Virus record (IMG/VR): IMGVR_UViG_3300020411_000702
Coordinates: 1 to 33,141 of that record
DNA: 33,141 bases
Reading direction: 5' to 3' (one strand)
Source of the DNA: a virus
Made by a program: the position numbers and the translations under genes. Positions 10,545-32,139 of the stretch are shown piece by piece (the first letter of the stretch is position 1; every line of letters starts with the position of its first letter). Under the pieces are notes generated by a model. It was not told the DNA's origin. It saw only the letters and a program-made list of their open reading frames with translations, and searched no databases.

Positions 10545-13500
10545 TTATTGACGGCCTACTCCTAGGATGGTTGCTTCAGTATCAGCTTGTTCATTCTTTC
10601 TCCTAAGACGAATTACTTTTTCATATCTAGCCATAAATGATGGATGGTTTTTCATCATTTCTAAAGTGGCTAATTTATAGTAGTAATTAACAATCATGTT
10701 ATAGGGTTCTTTTAAATTACCAGTATCTAGCTTGCTTCTATCTCCGCTAGTAAAATAACTAGGGTTCTTTGCCCTACTTGGACTTGTAGTCCATGTTTCT
10801 AAGAAATCATTATATTGTGGATTTTTTCTTAATAAATTTAACGCCTCAGTTAAAGTCTTACCGTTTACATACCTTTCTATATTTCCAGCCTTAGTATTTA
10901 AAGATTTCCTTCCTAGAACTTGAAACGCTGGAATATAACCCTTGAGTGTATAAGCCGCTTCTCTATATGTTGCCTCTTCTTCTCTATTCATTTGAATTGA
11001 TGCTTGATTTTCACCTCTTCCAATAGAAATCCTGCCATCTCTATTTGGATTAGTACCTAAACCATGTCTTGTGATCCATCTGGATAAAGCATCATCTTTC
11101 TTGATAATTGTTGCGCCTGGCATTGCTCTATCAGCAGGGAGGCCGAGAAGAGTAGCTTTTGTCTCATAACCCAACCAATCTTTTTCTGTTGGTTGAGGGA
11201 ACAGATCATCAGCAAAAGGAACACGATTGAAAGTTTCTCCTAGATAATCCTGTGTAGTGACTTTTAATGTGTCCATTATTCTTCTAATAGGACGCATTGC
11301 AGGATCATCTTCTAATGCTAGAAGCATTTGATTTGTCATATAACGCCTAGGTACTGTTCTTTCTCCTGCTCGTTGAAATTCGGATGCAGCGTCCCAATTT
11401 CCTAGTTGCCCACTAAAAGGAATCCAACCTCTACTTAAGCTCGCTAAAACTTTTCCATGATTTTTTCCATTACCATCAACATCGGAGAAGTAATTCATTA
11501 CATCTACCAATGCTTTTAATGAGTTTTTATTTTGAAGTACCCTTGTATAGGCTTGTGTAAGATCAGATAATGTATCTCTTTGTTGTTCGTGAGTAAAGAA
11601 CCCATCTTTTATTCCCCGAACAATATCAGCTTGTAAAAATATTAAGTCAAACAAATCAATAGATTTCATTGATATTTTCCCCATCAATTCAACACCATAT
11701 CTAAATAAAGAGAATGAATATGGTGTGTTATGCCTTAACCAATCTCTTCTATGATCTGGGTCTGCTGGTGGTGAACCTGTTATCTTTCCTGCCCCATCAT
11801 CTTCCATCTCTGTTAATGCAAAAACCATTCCAGCAAACATGGCTGCAACAACAGTTTTAGCTCTTTGATCTGCTAACTCTTCTCTAGTTATATTCCTTCC
11901 AGTTACGTTCTGAAATTCTTGAACCGCACTTCTTACACCATTAACAATAATGTCTCTATCAAACATCCAGCCTAAACCTTTTGCAGTTGTTTTAAATGCT
12001 GGCATCAACCAACTCATGTAAGGGTTTTTTCTGGCTAAATTAACTGCATTTCCAAGGTAAGCGGCTGCTCCTTTGTTTGAAAAATCTCCAGTAAAAGTAA
12101 CGTCATCTCCTCTTTGTTTCGCTAAATTTCCATATAAATCTGTCGTGTTTGGAACTCCAACTAAGTCATTAAATATTTTTAGTCTTAATTCATCATCTGG
12201 TAAATTCTGGCCTGCTGGCATCCCTACATATTTTTGTCTTAGCTTTTTAATATCTAACTCCTTCATTAATTTATTGGATTCAAATACCCAATTTTTTACA
12301 GCTTCATCTGCGTATCGTTGAGCAAAGGCATCAATACTGTCGGGTTGCATCGCTGGCCCCATTCTGGCTCCACCCATATCACCACCTCTAATTCGATCAC
12401 CTAAATTTTGAGTTGGAGTAACATTTCCTTTTGCTACTTCTACTCCCTCTGTATAGGCTTGCATGTGTATTACTTCCATTCCTGACGTATATCTAATGCC
12501 TTCATCTACTGCTGATAAAGCTCTAAATTCAGGGAAATAACCCCAGTCACTATTAAAGAATTTTTCTGATAAACCACCTGTTAATTGCCTAACCGAAGCA
12601 TTTAAAAGATTAAGAGTAGCGAAAGGTGCTGCTGATAATTTGCCAAAATTAAGGACAGTATCTTTATTCATTCCTTTTGGAATGTTGATAGATTCAGGGA
12701 ATTGTTTCCCTAGTCTTAATTTTTCAGGAATGTTATTTAACGCATTAATAGGAACTTCCCAACTTTCACCTGAGAAAAGAAATTCATAAGATTCATTTAA
12801 AGCATTTGTATTAAAATCTTTTGCAGCTTGTAAAGCGGCAGGACTCATTTCTTTTACATTCTTTCCTCCCATCCTTTGCCTTCCAGTCATAAAGGCACTT
12901 GTCGTATAGTTCCATGCGTTTTGCCAGTTTTCAATTAACTTTCTATTTGTATAACCAACTGCTTTTAATGCAGTCATGTAATCAGTCCTAAATGCTGATT
13001 TGTTTAAATCTTGCAGATAGAAATCGGCTCCAACTGAGATACCTGAAACTGGATTTCTTACAGCCCAAGTTGAAACTGAACTAAATAAATTAGCTTTTTT
13101 ATATTGAACTAAAGTCCTTAATTGAGCGCTTAATGCAGGCTCATTAATTGTTTCTTCTCTTAGTCCTGAAATTCTTCTTGAAATTGCTAGTTGCCTTAAT
13201 TTTTTATGATCGCCTTTATCAATATGATCGATAACTTGTGCTAATAAACTATCTCCTGTTACATCCTCAAGAGTTAATAATTCTGCATCTTTATTAAAGG
13301 TAAGAAGATCAAAACCTAAATCCATATCTTTTTGATAGCCCTGCAAAGCTTGTCCTAATTTTCTTCTTGTATAAGAATCCATCTGTTCCATTGTGTATGC
13401 CCACTTAGCTAAATAGCCCAACTCTTGTACGTTTTGCGGTGGCAAGACTCCTGATTCTTCAATGATATTTGCTGCATCTTCCAGACCATCAGCGTATGCC

Positions 13501-24597: not shown

Positions 24598-25395
24598 TTA
24601 TGGGATTTCGATTACACCTGCGCACTCAGGACGAAGAACATTCATACCAATTGCCATGCGAGCAACCATGAGGCTGGACTGATACATGACATTGAATGAT
24701 GAACCTTCGCTAGTTACCTGAAGGCTAGGAGCCTTTAAGGTAAGAACTCCGATTGCATCCTTGTGGAAGATGATGGCTTTGTTCTTAGATAAATCCTGCT
24801 GATAAGCAGTGTTTTTGTCGTAAGTGCCATTTGTGTAAGAGGCTTGTGTTACATGGTTTGACATGTGAACATCAATACCCTTGACACGCAATACACGGCC
24901 TCCTGCAAATGATCCATTCTCCCCTCCACCACTGTTGAAATCAGTGTTGATTGCTCTAGTGGAGTCAAGTAAGAAATCGTATTCGTCAGGGCCAACAACG
25001 CAAGCTAAGTTCTCTGTTGGAACATCAGCTTTTTGCATCTCAACTTTAATAGAACTAATCTTTTCAATTAGCTCATCGCCTTTGGCGTTCTTAGTTGCGG
25101 CTGCGTAGCCAGATGAAAGTGTTGCTGTGTGACCTGTGCGATTAGCGTTAATTGTTTTAGCTAATGGCTCTGTCGAAGTGTTTGCTGCTGCATAGAGAAC
25201 TCTAGCGGCTCTCTTGTCCCACTCATAAGCAAGGGCTAAACCTAGCTGATTGGTGATATCACTACGGTCTTCATAGTAATTCATTAATCTGTCCAAATCA
25301 TAGATGACCTGGTCAGCTATTAATAAACCATCTAAATTAATGACCTGTTCGTTTCTATCACCAGGGCTATTTGTTGCCCCTAAGATGGGTTGTCC
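24598..25395 (-). CDS. Major capsid protein, exon 2 (T7 gp10-like)
   Basis: This exon encodes residues 71-335 of the capsid protein. After splicing it begins GQPILGATNS, then ITIDGLL-type NLDGLLIADQVIYDLDRLMN, YYEDRSDITNQLGLALAYEW and, near the end, SSLMVARMAIGMNVLRPEC. This is the order of T7 gp10 homologues, HK97-fold shell proteins. The frame also runs to a TTG at 25398, but that TTG lies at the intron's 3' end and has no ribosome site, so this is not a separate gene. The full spliced protein of 335 aa is close to T7 gp10A (344 aa). A strong terminator follows. Confidence 0.95.
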   Translation of the reverse strand, partial: GQPILGATNSPGDRNEQVINLDGLLIADQVIYDLDRLMNYYEDRSDITNQLGLALAYEWDKRAARVLYAAANTSTEPLAKTINANRTGHTATLSSGYAAATKNAKGDELIEKISSIKVEMQKADVPTENLACVVGPDEYDFLLDSTRAINTDFNSGGGENGSFAGGRVLRVKGIDVHMSNHVTQASYTNGTYDKNTAYQQDLSKNKAIIFHKDAIGVLTLKAPSLQVTSEGSSFNVMYQSSLMVARMAIGMNVLRPECAGVIEIP

Positions 25396-25649
25396 CAATT
25401 TTGTTATCCCGAAAGCTCTTTATCTCTCGGTTCAACATCTTTACCATTGATGTTGTTCAGACTATATCTTCATCCTTAAAGGATGCAGGGCGCTCGTGGA
25501 AGCAAATTACTGAGTTTCCTCTCGGCTTCTAGTCGTTGAACCTTCCAGACTGTGATCTGGCTTGGCTGCTGATTACCCTTTAATGGTGGGCTTCCAGCAA
25601 TTCACCCTGTTCATTCCTACTGTTACCAGCAGAAAGCCCTAGACAAATA
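25396..25649 (-). ncRNA. Group I intron (subgroup IA-like) in the major capsid gene, no endonuclease ORF
   Basis: This is a self-splicing intron of 254 nt. On the minus strand: P1 pairs exon CCU plus intron UA with UAGGG, giving the required U-G at the 5' splice site. P2 is CTGCTG/CAGTAG with a GTAA loop, P3 CAGGGTG/CGCCCTG, P4 TGCTG/CAGCA, P5 GCCC/GGGT and P6 CCAGA/TCTGG. P7 is GACTA (25534-25530) with TAGTC (25464-25460) inside the classic AAGATATAGTC. P7.1 is GAAGC/GCTTC, P8 CATCC/GGATG, P9 CAACATC/GATGTTG and P9.1 CCGAGAG/CTTTCGG. P10 pairs TTGTCT with exon 2 GGACAA. The last base is G (25396). Joining 25650 to 25395 restores the frame at a Pro-Gly conserved in T7-type capsids. Confidence 0.96.
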
Positions 25650-25859
25650 AGGAACGTGGTAGGCCGCCGCCGCACGACCCGAAACTGGGAAGGCTGCACT
25701 TTTACCACCTGAGATGGAACGCTCTTTAACTTTTCCTTTGAATACACAATTACGTTCAAAAGCTGAAAGTAATTCCGCAATTCCTAATTTCAGGAACAGA
25801 GCGTCTACCGCATTTGCTCCCTTTATCTGACCTAAACGGTCTAAACTGGCGTTAGCCAT
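25650..25859 (-). CDS. Major capsid protein, exon 1 (T7 gp10-like)
   Basis: This exon encodes residues 1-70: MANASLDRLGQIKGANAVDA, LFLKLGIAELLSAFERN, then SGGKSAAFPVSGRAAAAYHV and P. It matches the N-arm and E-loop part of T7 gp10 (SGKSAQFPVLGRTQAAYLAPG). Beyond P70 the frame reads only nine intron residues to a stop at 25623, so unspliced mRNA would give a truncated 78-aa capsid fragment. The ATG lies at 25859 behind a 76-nt A-rich leader without a clear Shine-Dalgarno sequence, downstream of the palindrome at 25936-25947. Confidence 0.95.
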
Positions 25860-28510: not shown

Positions 28511-28987
28511 TTAACCTCCGAGGTTGACACCTACACCGCCTTCTCTTTTAAGAGAGCCGACTCGTAGATCTTTAGTAGGTGAGTTGTATCTAGCTTGATT
28601 TGAAATGCCTTTCTTTTTAAAATCTTGTCCTGCCTGTGGTGCTTGACCTTTCTTTTTCTTTTTTGTTGATAAAACTTGCAGTGATTGATTAACAGATTGA
28701 TTAACTAAGTTTTGCTGCTTTATCCTTGCTTGTTCTTCTGCAAATTGAGCTTCTTGTAAAGCTCTTATTGCATCAAAGTTTTGTTGGGCAACTTGGTTCT
28801 CAGCCGTTATTGCTTCTTGTGATGATTGAAATGTTTTTACTTGTTCTTCTTGTTTTTTAATTTCTAATTCCAGAACTTTATTTTGTGCCTCTATCTCTGC
28901 TTGTCTATCTGCTGCTATTTGATTTAAACGAGCTTGTTCTTCGGCAGCTTTTCTTGCTGCTCTTCTTCTTCTACGTCCCATGCACAT
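28511..28987 (-). CDS. Small virion-type protein with MCMG start, coiled coil (gp6.7/7.3-like position)
   Basis: This 158-aa protein starts MCMGRRRRRAARKAAEEQAR and continues as a Gln/Glu/Lys coiled coil to about residue 105. A KKKKK cluster and a C-terminal tail follow (LRVGSLKREGGVGVNLGG). It shares with its two upstream neighbours the M-C-M/F-G start and a basic tail ending in small residues. T7 gp6.7 starts MCFSPK and T7 gp7.3 ends GKKSLSVARSSGGGINI, so these are plausible counterparts: ejected or tail-associated virion proteins. A GGGGG ribosome site lies 9 nt before the ATG. Confidence 0.7.
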   Translation of the reverse strand: MCMGRRRRRAARKAAEEQARLNQIAADRQAEIEAQNKVLELEIKKQEEQVKTFQSSQEAITAENQVAQQNFDAIRALQEAQFAEEQARIKQQNLVNQSVNQSLQVLSTKKKKKGQAPQAGQDFKKKGISNQARYNSPTKDLRVGSLKREGGVGVNLGG

Positions 28988-31163: not shown

Positions 31164-31609
31164 CAATTTCCTCCTTCGAGCGTTCGGTTAGCTTTAAAAG
31201 TTTTGTAAGCCTGTTTGTTTTCTTTATCTGGTGGTTCATAGTTAGATACTGGCTTAGGTGGCATTAAGGCCAATTGATTTGGGACAGGTTGACACATTGG
31301 AGGAAGATTCTCTTTAAATCCCCAACTTCTATTAGGCTTTCCGTTCTCAAGCCTGTAAAGAAAAGTCATTAACTCATCCCAAGTGGGATAGCGCAGGAAA
31401 TCTTTGTTGGTTGTTGTCTGGACAAACTGTTCGGCAGCCCATAAGAACTGTTCCTGACTTACTTCTGGGTAGGCTTGAGTAAAAGAGACATACTTAAGTT
31501 GAGATATTTGAGCCGACCAACGATCAGCCTCTTTGATTCTTAAGTGTGCAGCTATCATTTCTGACGCTGCCAAGAATGTCTGGATACTTAACTTGCTTTG
31601 TTTTGCCAT
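31163..31609 (-). CDS. Unknown protein in the replication operon
   Basis: This 148-aa protein has a helical N-terminal 90 residues (SIQTFLAASEMIAAHLRIKE, VSQEQFLWAAEQFVQ, YPTWDELMTFLYRLENG) and a Pro-rich tail. The arrangement of a four-helix domain ending Y-P-T-W-x-E-L resembles small replication-accessory or helicase-loader proteins, but I cannot name a family. It lies between the zinc-ribbon protein (22-nt overlap) and the small helical protein. Confidence 0.6.
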   Translation of the reverse strand: MAKQSKLSIQTFLAASEMIAAHLRIKEADRWSAQISQLKYVSFTQAYPEVSQEQFLWAAEQFVQTTTNKDFLRYPTWDELMTFLYRLENGKPNRSWGFKENLPPMCQPVPNQLALMPPKPVSNYEPPDKENKQAYKTFKANRTLEGGN

Positions 31610-32139
31610 TCCCTTATTGCCTCATTCATAGCTGGATCTTTTGGTGCTAATCCAACTGTCTTTTCTTCAGGGGCATGATTGATATAGCTAGGCTTTAAAG
31701 CTTGCCATCCATGTTCAACCCCTGCCTTGGCAAGTTCCTCTTGCAAGTAAACAGGTAAACCATGCAACCGTTGAATACTTAAAACAAAAGCATCTTGTGA
31801 CCAGACGGCTCTGTTCTTATGTTTTTGCCAACGACTACTGTTCCACCATTGACAAACCAAAGGTTTAATTGTGGCACTAATTCCCTTTAATAAATCATCA
31901 TCAGGAAGGGCTACAAACTTTGAAGGTGGTGGAGTTTTGATTTTGTTTTTAAAAGAAACTGTTGGTTGTATTGGTGATACTTCACAAACTCCATAGGGTT
32001 CGCCTGCATCAACACAAATTCTTTCAAGCGTTGTAAAATCAAATCCACAATTAGTGCAAATCCTCCATCTTTTATCACAGCTAGTACTTGGTCTAGTTTG
32101 TGTAACTTTCGTGGCTGATTTACATTTAGGACATTGCAT
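31588..32139 (-). CDS. Protein with NrdR-like N-terminal zinc ribbon
   Basis: Residues 1-40 hold C3-x2-C6 and C28-x2-C31 in the setting MQCPKCKSATKVTQTRPS...RRWRIC-like KRWRICTNCGFDFTTLERI. This closely follows the zinc ribbon of the ribonucleotide-reductase repressor NrdR (M-x-C-P-x-C...R-x-R-x-C-x-x-C-x-x-R-F-T-T-x-E). The remaining 140 residues lack a recognisable ATP-cone, so it is not a full NrdR. It may bind DNA or RNA as part of replication, or regulate transcription. The start overlaps the RusA stop (TAATG). Confidence 0.7.
   Translation of the reverse strand: MQCPKCKSATKVTQTRPSTSCDKRWRICTNCGFDFTTLERICVDAGEPYGVCEVSPIQPTVSFKNKIKTPPPSKFVALPDDDLLKGISATIKPLVCQWWNSSRWQKHKNRAVWSQDAFVLSIQRLHGLPVYLQEELAKAGVEHGWQALKPSYINHAPEEKTVGLAPKDPAMNEAIREWQNKAS

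What the first reader, a model, noticed from the sequence alone, without database searches (positions are those of the whole stretch)
25396..25649. Complete 254-nt endonuclease-free group I intron inside the major capsid gene
The capsid frame breaks after Pro70 and resumes 254 nt later at Gly71. The intervening RNA folds by eye into every group I core helix (P1, P2 with a GUAA loop, P3-P8, P7.1, P9, P9.1, P10). It has AAGATATAGTC at P7, a U-G pair at the 5' splice site and a terminal G. Splicing restores a 335-aa T7-type capsid protein at the conserved Pro-Gly. It is unusual to place a ribozyme in the most highly expressed phage gene, and without a homing endonuclease ORF. It could act as a late-expression check, or be the remnant of a mobile intron that lost its endonuclease, perhaps relying on one encoded elsewhere.
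Basis: partly seen in the sequence, partly recalled or inferred. Interest (0 to 1): 0.85.

Follow-up and report, generated by a model that had tools for sequence, protein, structure and literature searches.

The report
Self-splicing intron in a capsid gene
The main shell-protein gene of this virus, a relative of viruses of photosynthetic bacteria, is interrupted by a small RNA that cuts itself out, and this RNA belongs to a lineage found almost only in shell-protein genes, jumping between unrelated capsid genes without carrying the usual DNA-cutting enzyme.

Summary
Minus-strand 25649-25396 is a 254-nt group I intron (Rfam RF00028, 81.2 bits, E 2e-19) between Pro70 and Gly71 of a 335-aa T7-type (Gp10A-like) major capsid protein (MCP). 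Seventy relatives, up to 96% identical in the protein, lack it at exactly this junction. Across 38 related introns, 44 of 66 core pairs show compensatory changes. P1 and P10 fit each intron's own exons, and the reading frame always meets a stop before the core.

As an intron it is an ordinary member of a known kind; capsid introns and ORF-less phage introns are both published. The new part is the family. Its close relatives (about 250 nt, ORF-less) sit in MCP genes in 56 of 58 cases. They span three unrelated capsid families whose named relatives are mostly cyanophages, at five sites in the T7-type gene and about twenty in all, with up to six group I introns in one gene. Introns in unrelated capsid genes are up to 91% identical. 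LAGLIDADG-bearing cousins share two sites with ORF-less ones, but only in one capsid family. No endonuclease was found in this record.

Splicing and mobility are inferred. Whether it moves by an endonuclease in trans or by reverse splicing is open.

The parts
25650..25859 (-). MCP exon 1 (codons 1-70, ends CCU)
   Evidence: Frame and junction
25396..25649 (-). ORF-less group I intron, 254 nt
   Evidence: RF00028 81.2 bits; covariation; intron-free alleles
24598..25395 (-). MCP exon 2 (codons 71-335 and stop), Gp10A-like
   Evidence: PF21703 E 1.5e-30
25637..25652 (-). P1: exon CCU plus intron nt 1-2 with IGS UAGGG (nt 9-13); U-1 pairs with G11
   Evidence: fits own exon better than shuffled exons
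25641..25646 (-). IGS half of P10 (UUGUCU)
   Evidence: 6 bp with 25395-25390
25390..25395 (-). Exon-2 half of P10 (GGACAA)
25614..25635 (-). P2 hairpin with GUAA loop; its UAA (25625-25623) is the in-frame stop, codon 79
   Evidence: 78-aa ORF 25623-25859
25603..25609 (-). P3 5' strand (3' strand 25492-25486)
   Evidence: 96.6% of cells paired, 4 of 7 pairs with double changes
25567..25599 (-). P4 and P5
   Evidence: 96.1% of cells paired
25540..25566 (-). P6 and P6a
25530..25534 (-). P7 5' strand GACUA (3' strand UAGUC 25464-25460)
   Evidence: Invariant in 38 of 38 introns
25499..25529 (-). P7.1 and P7.2; in endonuclease-bearing cousins the ORF interrupts the profile here
25471..25485 (-). 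P8
   Evidence: 5 of 5 pairs with double changes
25433..25455 (-). P9
   Evidence: 100% paired, 6 of 7 pairs with double changes
25409..25430 (-). P9.1
   Evidence: 100% paired, 6 of 7 pairs with double changes

Best explanation
A group I intron with a P7.1/P7.2 extension interrupts the MCP gene of a T7-like phage related to cyanophage S-SRP02. In the late transcript the 5' exon end (CCU) pairs with the internal guide (UAGGG) to form P1, an external guanosine cuts after the last U of codon 70, and exon 2 (GGACAA) pairs as P10 for ligation, giving the 335-aa capsid protein. Ribosomes leaving exon 1 stop at the UAA in the P2 loop and so stay out of the ribozyme core. The element is selfish and nearly neutral. 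It belongs to a lineage of about 250-nt ORF-less introns that gains and loses sites in capsid genes, including between unrelated capsid families, with a new guide sequence at each site. Shown here: sequence, structure, intron-free alleles, multi-site and multi-gene spread, and guide fit. Inferred: self-splicing, neutrality, and the way it moves.
For: RF00028 hit; exact restoration of the 335-aa frame in every intron-bearing allele checked; 70 intron-free alleles; covariation; P1 and P10 fit own exons (P1 12.77 vs 9.76 +/- 0.47, P10 9.92 vs 6.69 +/- 0.35 for shuffled exons, 0 of 500); in-frame stop within 37 nt in 36 of 36 introns vs 49 of 72 other frames, Fisher p 3e-5; 56 of 58 close relatives in MCP genes of three families; 90.9% identical introns in unrelated capsid genes; capsid-family label scattered on the intron tree, 11 changes vs 12.1 shuffled.
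Against: No RNA evidence was available. P2 is poorly conserved across the family (55% of cells paired, partly an alignment effect). Neutrality is assumed: the strong capsid-gene preference could mean a function there. The route of movement is not shown.
Confidence: 0.93

Rival explanations
1. Movement by DNA homing: the intron lost its own LAGLIDADG endonuclease, or is carried by an endonuclease encoded in trans in this or a co-infecting phage (collaborative homing).
For: LAGLIDADG-bearing cousins exist in S-EIV1-type capsid genes and share site 88+1 (L115 and L119 with ORF, L143 without) and site ~48 (L112, L113, L116, L117 with; L094, L145 without) with ORF-less introns. Trans-acting endonucleases that mobilise ORF-less phage introns are reviewed in PMC3984707.
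Against: No endonuclease form at any of the five T7-type capsid sites; none found in this record beyond one sub-threshold out-of-frame hit, nor with these models in the T7-type intron-bearing contigs searched; no ORF unique to intron-bearing phages near the gene. A site-specific endonuclease does not easily explain jumps between unrelated sequences.
Confidence: 0.5
2. Movement by RNA: the excised intron reverse-splices into abundant late mRNAs that match its short guide (GCCU, UCCU, GGCU), followed by reverse transcription and recombination. Capsid mRNA is hit most because it is most abundant.
For: Capsid-only distribution across unrelated genes; near-identical introns at sites sharing only the 4-nt 5' exon end (GCCU: L019 site C and L090; UCCU: this intron and L157/L171) with the P10 segment refitted. 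Reverse splicing needs only four to six matching bases (PMC3984707) and is proposed for rDNA introns (PMC1299323).
Against: Selection for splicing alone would also enforce the guide match. No reverse transcriptase (RVT_1) in 20 of these phage records, many of them fragments.
Confidence: 0.3
3. The intron is kept as a switch that delays or tunes capsid production.
For: Capsid-gene restriction; a reviewed study (cited in PMC3073962) reports that T4 intron splicing depends on translation and growth state; stop placement conserved.
Against: Seventy relatives lack it; sites differ and gain or loss is recent (alleles with 94.5% identical coding sequence carry introns at different sites).
Confidence: 0.12
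4. Chance resemblance or an assembly error.
For: None found.
Against: Rfam score, covariation, and same-site copies in separate contigs.
Confidence: 0.01

Closest known systems
Rfam RF00028 group I catalytic intron with P7.1/P7.2 (phage group IA type)
   Same: All core helices, U-G at the 5' site, terminal G, P10, early in-frame stop
   Different: Very compact (254 nt), no ORF; subgroup not formally assigned here
Mycobacteriophage LittleE MCP intron and BAKA 265-bp tail-gene intron (PMC3706429)
   Same: Late structural genes; a capsid location (LittleE); an ORF-less form (BAKA); related introns in two different structural genes
   Different: LittleE carries a LAGLIDADG-like ORF; different host and phage type; one site each, not a multi-site capsid lineage. 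Sequence relation to this intron not tested.
T7-like cyanophage Pf-WMP3 DNA polymerase intron with I-PfoP3I (PMC3428280)
   Same: Group I intron (IA2 per the paper) in a T7-like cyanophage
   Different: DNA polymerase gene, encodes an HNH nicking endonuclease. Sequence relation to this intron not tested.
Introns in uncultured phages cr50_1 (dUTPase gene, HNH ORF) and bajarodcaudo virus 1 (capsid gene, endonuclease ORFs)
   Same: Recognisable core similarity (about 70-75% over 120-160 nt); the second also splits an MCP gene
   Different: Endonuclease-bearing, gut phages, distant (113 and 56 bits)

Membership tests
Group I intron | Matches the group I covariance model above the curated score | tested here: met
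   81.2 vs 50 bits, full model
Group I intron | P3-P9 core with P3/P7 pseudoknot, supported by covariation | tested here: met
   P7 itself invariant, so neutral there
Group I intron | U-G wobble at the 5' splice site in P1, terminal G, P10 | tested here: met
Group I intron | Precise removal restores the host protein; intron-free alleles exist | tested here: met
Group I intron | GTP-initiated self-splicing | not testable with these tools
   Needs RNA
Mobile (homing) group I intron | Encodes a homing endonuclease | tested here: not met
   No ORF of 60 aa or more within 25396-25649
Mobile (homing) group I intron | Endonuclease in trans | tested here: inconclusive
   HNH_3, HNH, LAGLIDADG_2: none; GIY-YIG: one sub-threshold out-of-frame hit; record may be a fragment
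Mobile (homing) group I intron | Patchy presence among close relatives | tested here: met

The most novel reading that the evidence does not exclude
A lineage of ORF-less group I introns specialised on major capsid genes spreads between unrelated, mostly cyanophage-like viruses at the RNA level: excised introns reverse-splice into the most abundant late mRNA and return to DNA, so target choice is set by transcript abundance plus a 4-6 nt guide match, not by a DNA endonuclease.
Probability: 0.3. Interest if true: 0.85.

Novelty: new member of a known kind. Interest (0 to 1): 0.58.

Why it matters
The intron itself is a normal group I intron. Its lineage is the point: small introns with no endonuclease that occupy about twenty sites in three unrelated capsid gene families and pass between them. 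That is a natural system for asking how ORF-less group I introns reach new sites, a question usually argued from ribosomal DNA. It also matters practically: capsid genes are used as phage markers, and introns like these split them, so annotation and marker surveys will miss or truncate the protein.

Tried and rejected
Searched for an intron-linked free-standing endonuclease: the unknown 158-aa ORF at 28511-28987 was a candidate because S-SRP02 has no gene annotated there, but intron-free relatives have it too. A weak GIY-YIG hit at 12026-12124 is out of frame, below threshold and contains two stops. A search of 84,980 bacterial and archaeal species genomes with the intron core found nothing, so no host or prophage reservoir was seen at that stringency. 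Reverse transcriptase search found none. A single-sequence fold of the intron was of little use: it cannot show the P3/P7 pseudoknot. Early in-frame stops looked new but are described as typical of group I introns (PMC3073962). Paper searches found no report of this capsid-restricted lineage; the library lacks most subscription journals.

Full report
WHAT IS THERE. The capsid frame runs from ATG 25859 to 25650 on the minus strand, breaks, and resumes at 25395 to the stop at 24598. Joining the two gives 335 aa with Pro70-Gly71 at the junction; reading on into the insert stops at codon 79. Exon 2 is a Gp10A-like major capsid protein. The insert scores 81.2 bits against RF00028, over the whole model. 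The record is a 33,141-base virus record classed as linear, so possibly a fragment. Its nearest named relative is the Synechococcus podovirus S-SRP02, 79% identical in the capsid protein, with an uninterrupted capsid gene.

IS IT REAL. A protein search with exon 2 returned 80 contigs. At the same codon junction, 70 relatives read straight through (the 70 include S-SRP02). Intron-free alleles use CCT, CCG, CCC or CCA for Pro70; the intron-bearing alleles window, L010 and L011 all have CCT, which supplies the U needed at the splice site. Removing the inserts restores 335 aa in all intron-bearing alleles examined (the L019 row was cut a few bases too long by the script, but shows the full C-terminus). 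L003 is a fourth same-site case, cut by its contig end.

STRUCTURE TEST. Thirty-eight distinct related introns were aligned and the hand-drawn structure counted: 91.1% of cells paired, 44 of 66 pairs with compensatory double changes, covariation score 0.418 against 0.133 +/- 0.007 in shuffles and 0.144 or less in slid controls. P7 and P6 are invariant and so add nothing either way. P2 is weakly supported. The structure was drawn on the window sequence, which favours the unslid version somewhat, but the double changes are far beyond that effect.

GUIDE FIT. Splice sites were chosen by protein alignment, with only U before and G at the end of the intron required. P1 and P10 then fit each intron's own exons better than exons of the other introns: 12.77 vs 9.76 +/- 0.47 and 9.92 vs 6.69 +/- 0.35, none of 500 shuffles as high. 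The shuffles ignore relatedness, and same-site introns are partly redundant, so this is strong but not a strict probability. In 36 of 36 distinct introns the exon frame meets a stop within the first 37 nt, ahead of P3; the other two frames do so in 49 of 72. In this intron the stop is the UAA of the P2 GUAA loop. Such early stops are described as usual for group I introns (PMC3073962).

THE FAMILY. Pattern scans of IMG/VR with core sequence only, scored with a profile of seven seed introns, gave 58 distinct introns at 120 bits or more. Fifty-six lie in MCP genes: Gp10A-like, phrog_247 and phrog_1357. The other two (L170, L198) lie in an unidentified small gene. Because the seeds came from capsid genes, this describes the clade and is not a survey of all phage introns; weaker relatives lie in dUTPase, ribonucleotide reductase, DNA polymerase, an ATPase, a Sak4-like gene and further capsid genes. 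Named relatives of the three capsid families: S-SRP02 at 79% and S-EIV1 at 69%, both cyanophages; for phrog_247 the best named match is a marine single-cell virus record at 49%, then cyanophage S-2L at 39%. Shared cyanobacterial hosts are therefore likely for two families and a guess for the third.

SITES. In the Gp10A-like gene there are five: after codon 56 (+1 nt), 65, 66 (+1), 70 (this one) and 311 (+2). In phrog_247 there are three: 61, 68, 107 (+1). In phrog_1357 eight are clearly placed: 40, 88 (+1), 132 (+1), 144, 236, 242, 285, 353; several more are approximate. L019 has two introns in one gene. S-EIV1-like genes have more: six hits in L104 (one weak, 27 bits) and five in L163.

HISTORY. 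On an intron tree built without the guide region, capsid-family labels need 11 changes, no fewer than shuffled labels (12.1). Few branches are strongly supported, but those alone force at least 3 to 4 changes for each group. L019 site C (Gp10A-like) and L090 (phrog_247) are 90.9% identical over 242 aligned positions, from unrelated genes and from the same metagenome. L010 and L013 have 94.5% identical capsid genes but introns at different sites that are only 75.6% identical, so the two were acquired separately.

HOW IT MOVES. Two routes remain. DNA homing: LAGLIDADG-bearing cousins exist and share two phrog_1357 sites with ORF-less introns. Reverse splicing: unrelated targets share only the short guide match. 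No endonuclease was found in this record beyond one sub-threshold out-of-frame GIY-YIG hit and no reverse transcriptase, but the records are partial. I give homing, past or in trans, about 0.5, reverse splicing about 0.3, and a kept regulatory role about 0.12.

VERDICT. Observation confirmed. As a feature it is a new member of a known kind: capsid introns and ORF-less structural-gene introns are published (PMC3706429). The capsid-restricted, multi-site lineage was not found in the papers available here and is what makes it worth following.

Noticed in passing
L104:3682-5880, L163:8059-10140 (minus strand), L118:3597-4659, L132:3139-4977: S-EIV1-like (phrog_1357) major capsid genes carry three to six group I introns each, some with LAGLIDADG ORFs in related contigs. 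Far denser than usual for a phage gene.
   Followed up: partly
L112, L113, L114, L115, L116, L117, L119, L129 (capsid genes): Related introns with LAGLIDADG_2-type ORFs inserted around P7.1, at sites some of which also hold ORF-less introns.
   Followed up: partly
L161, L206, L179, L151, L160, L184 and others: More distant relatives of this intron recur in phage dUTPase genes and in ATPase, DNA polymerase and ribonucleotide reductase genes.
   Followed up: partly
L170:4091-4304 and L198:5728-5972: The only two close relatives outside capsid genes sit in a short gene (about 80 aa) with no PHROGs match.
   Followed up: partly
L092 contig (G016), 1079, 3843, 7914, 17754: Four HNH_3 endonuclease genes in a contig whose phrog_247 capsid gene holds an ORF-less intron; possible trans-acting partners.
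   Followed up: no
window 31588-32139 (-): NrdR-like zinc ribbon at the N-terminus of a 183-aa protein, a gene S-SRP02 also has; function in the phage unclear.
   Followed up: no
window 28511-28987 (-): Fast-evolving 158-aa ORF next to the portal gene with no family match; 30-88% identical in relatives with and without the intron.
   Followed up: yes
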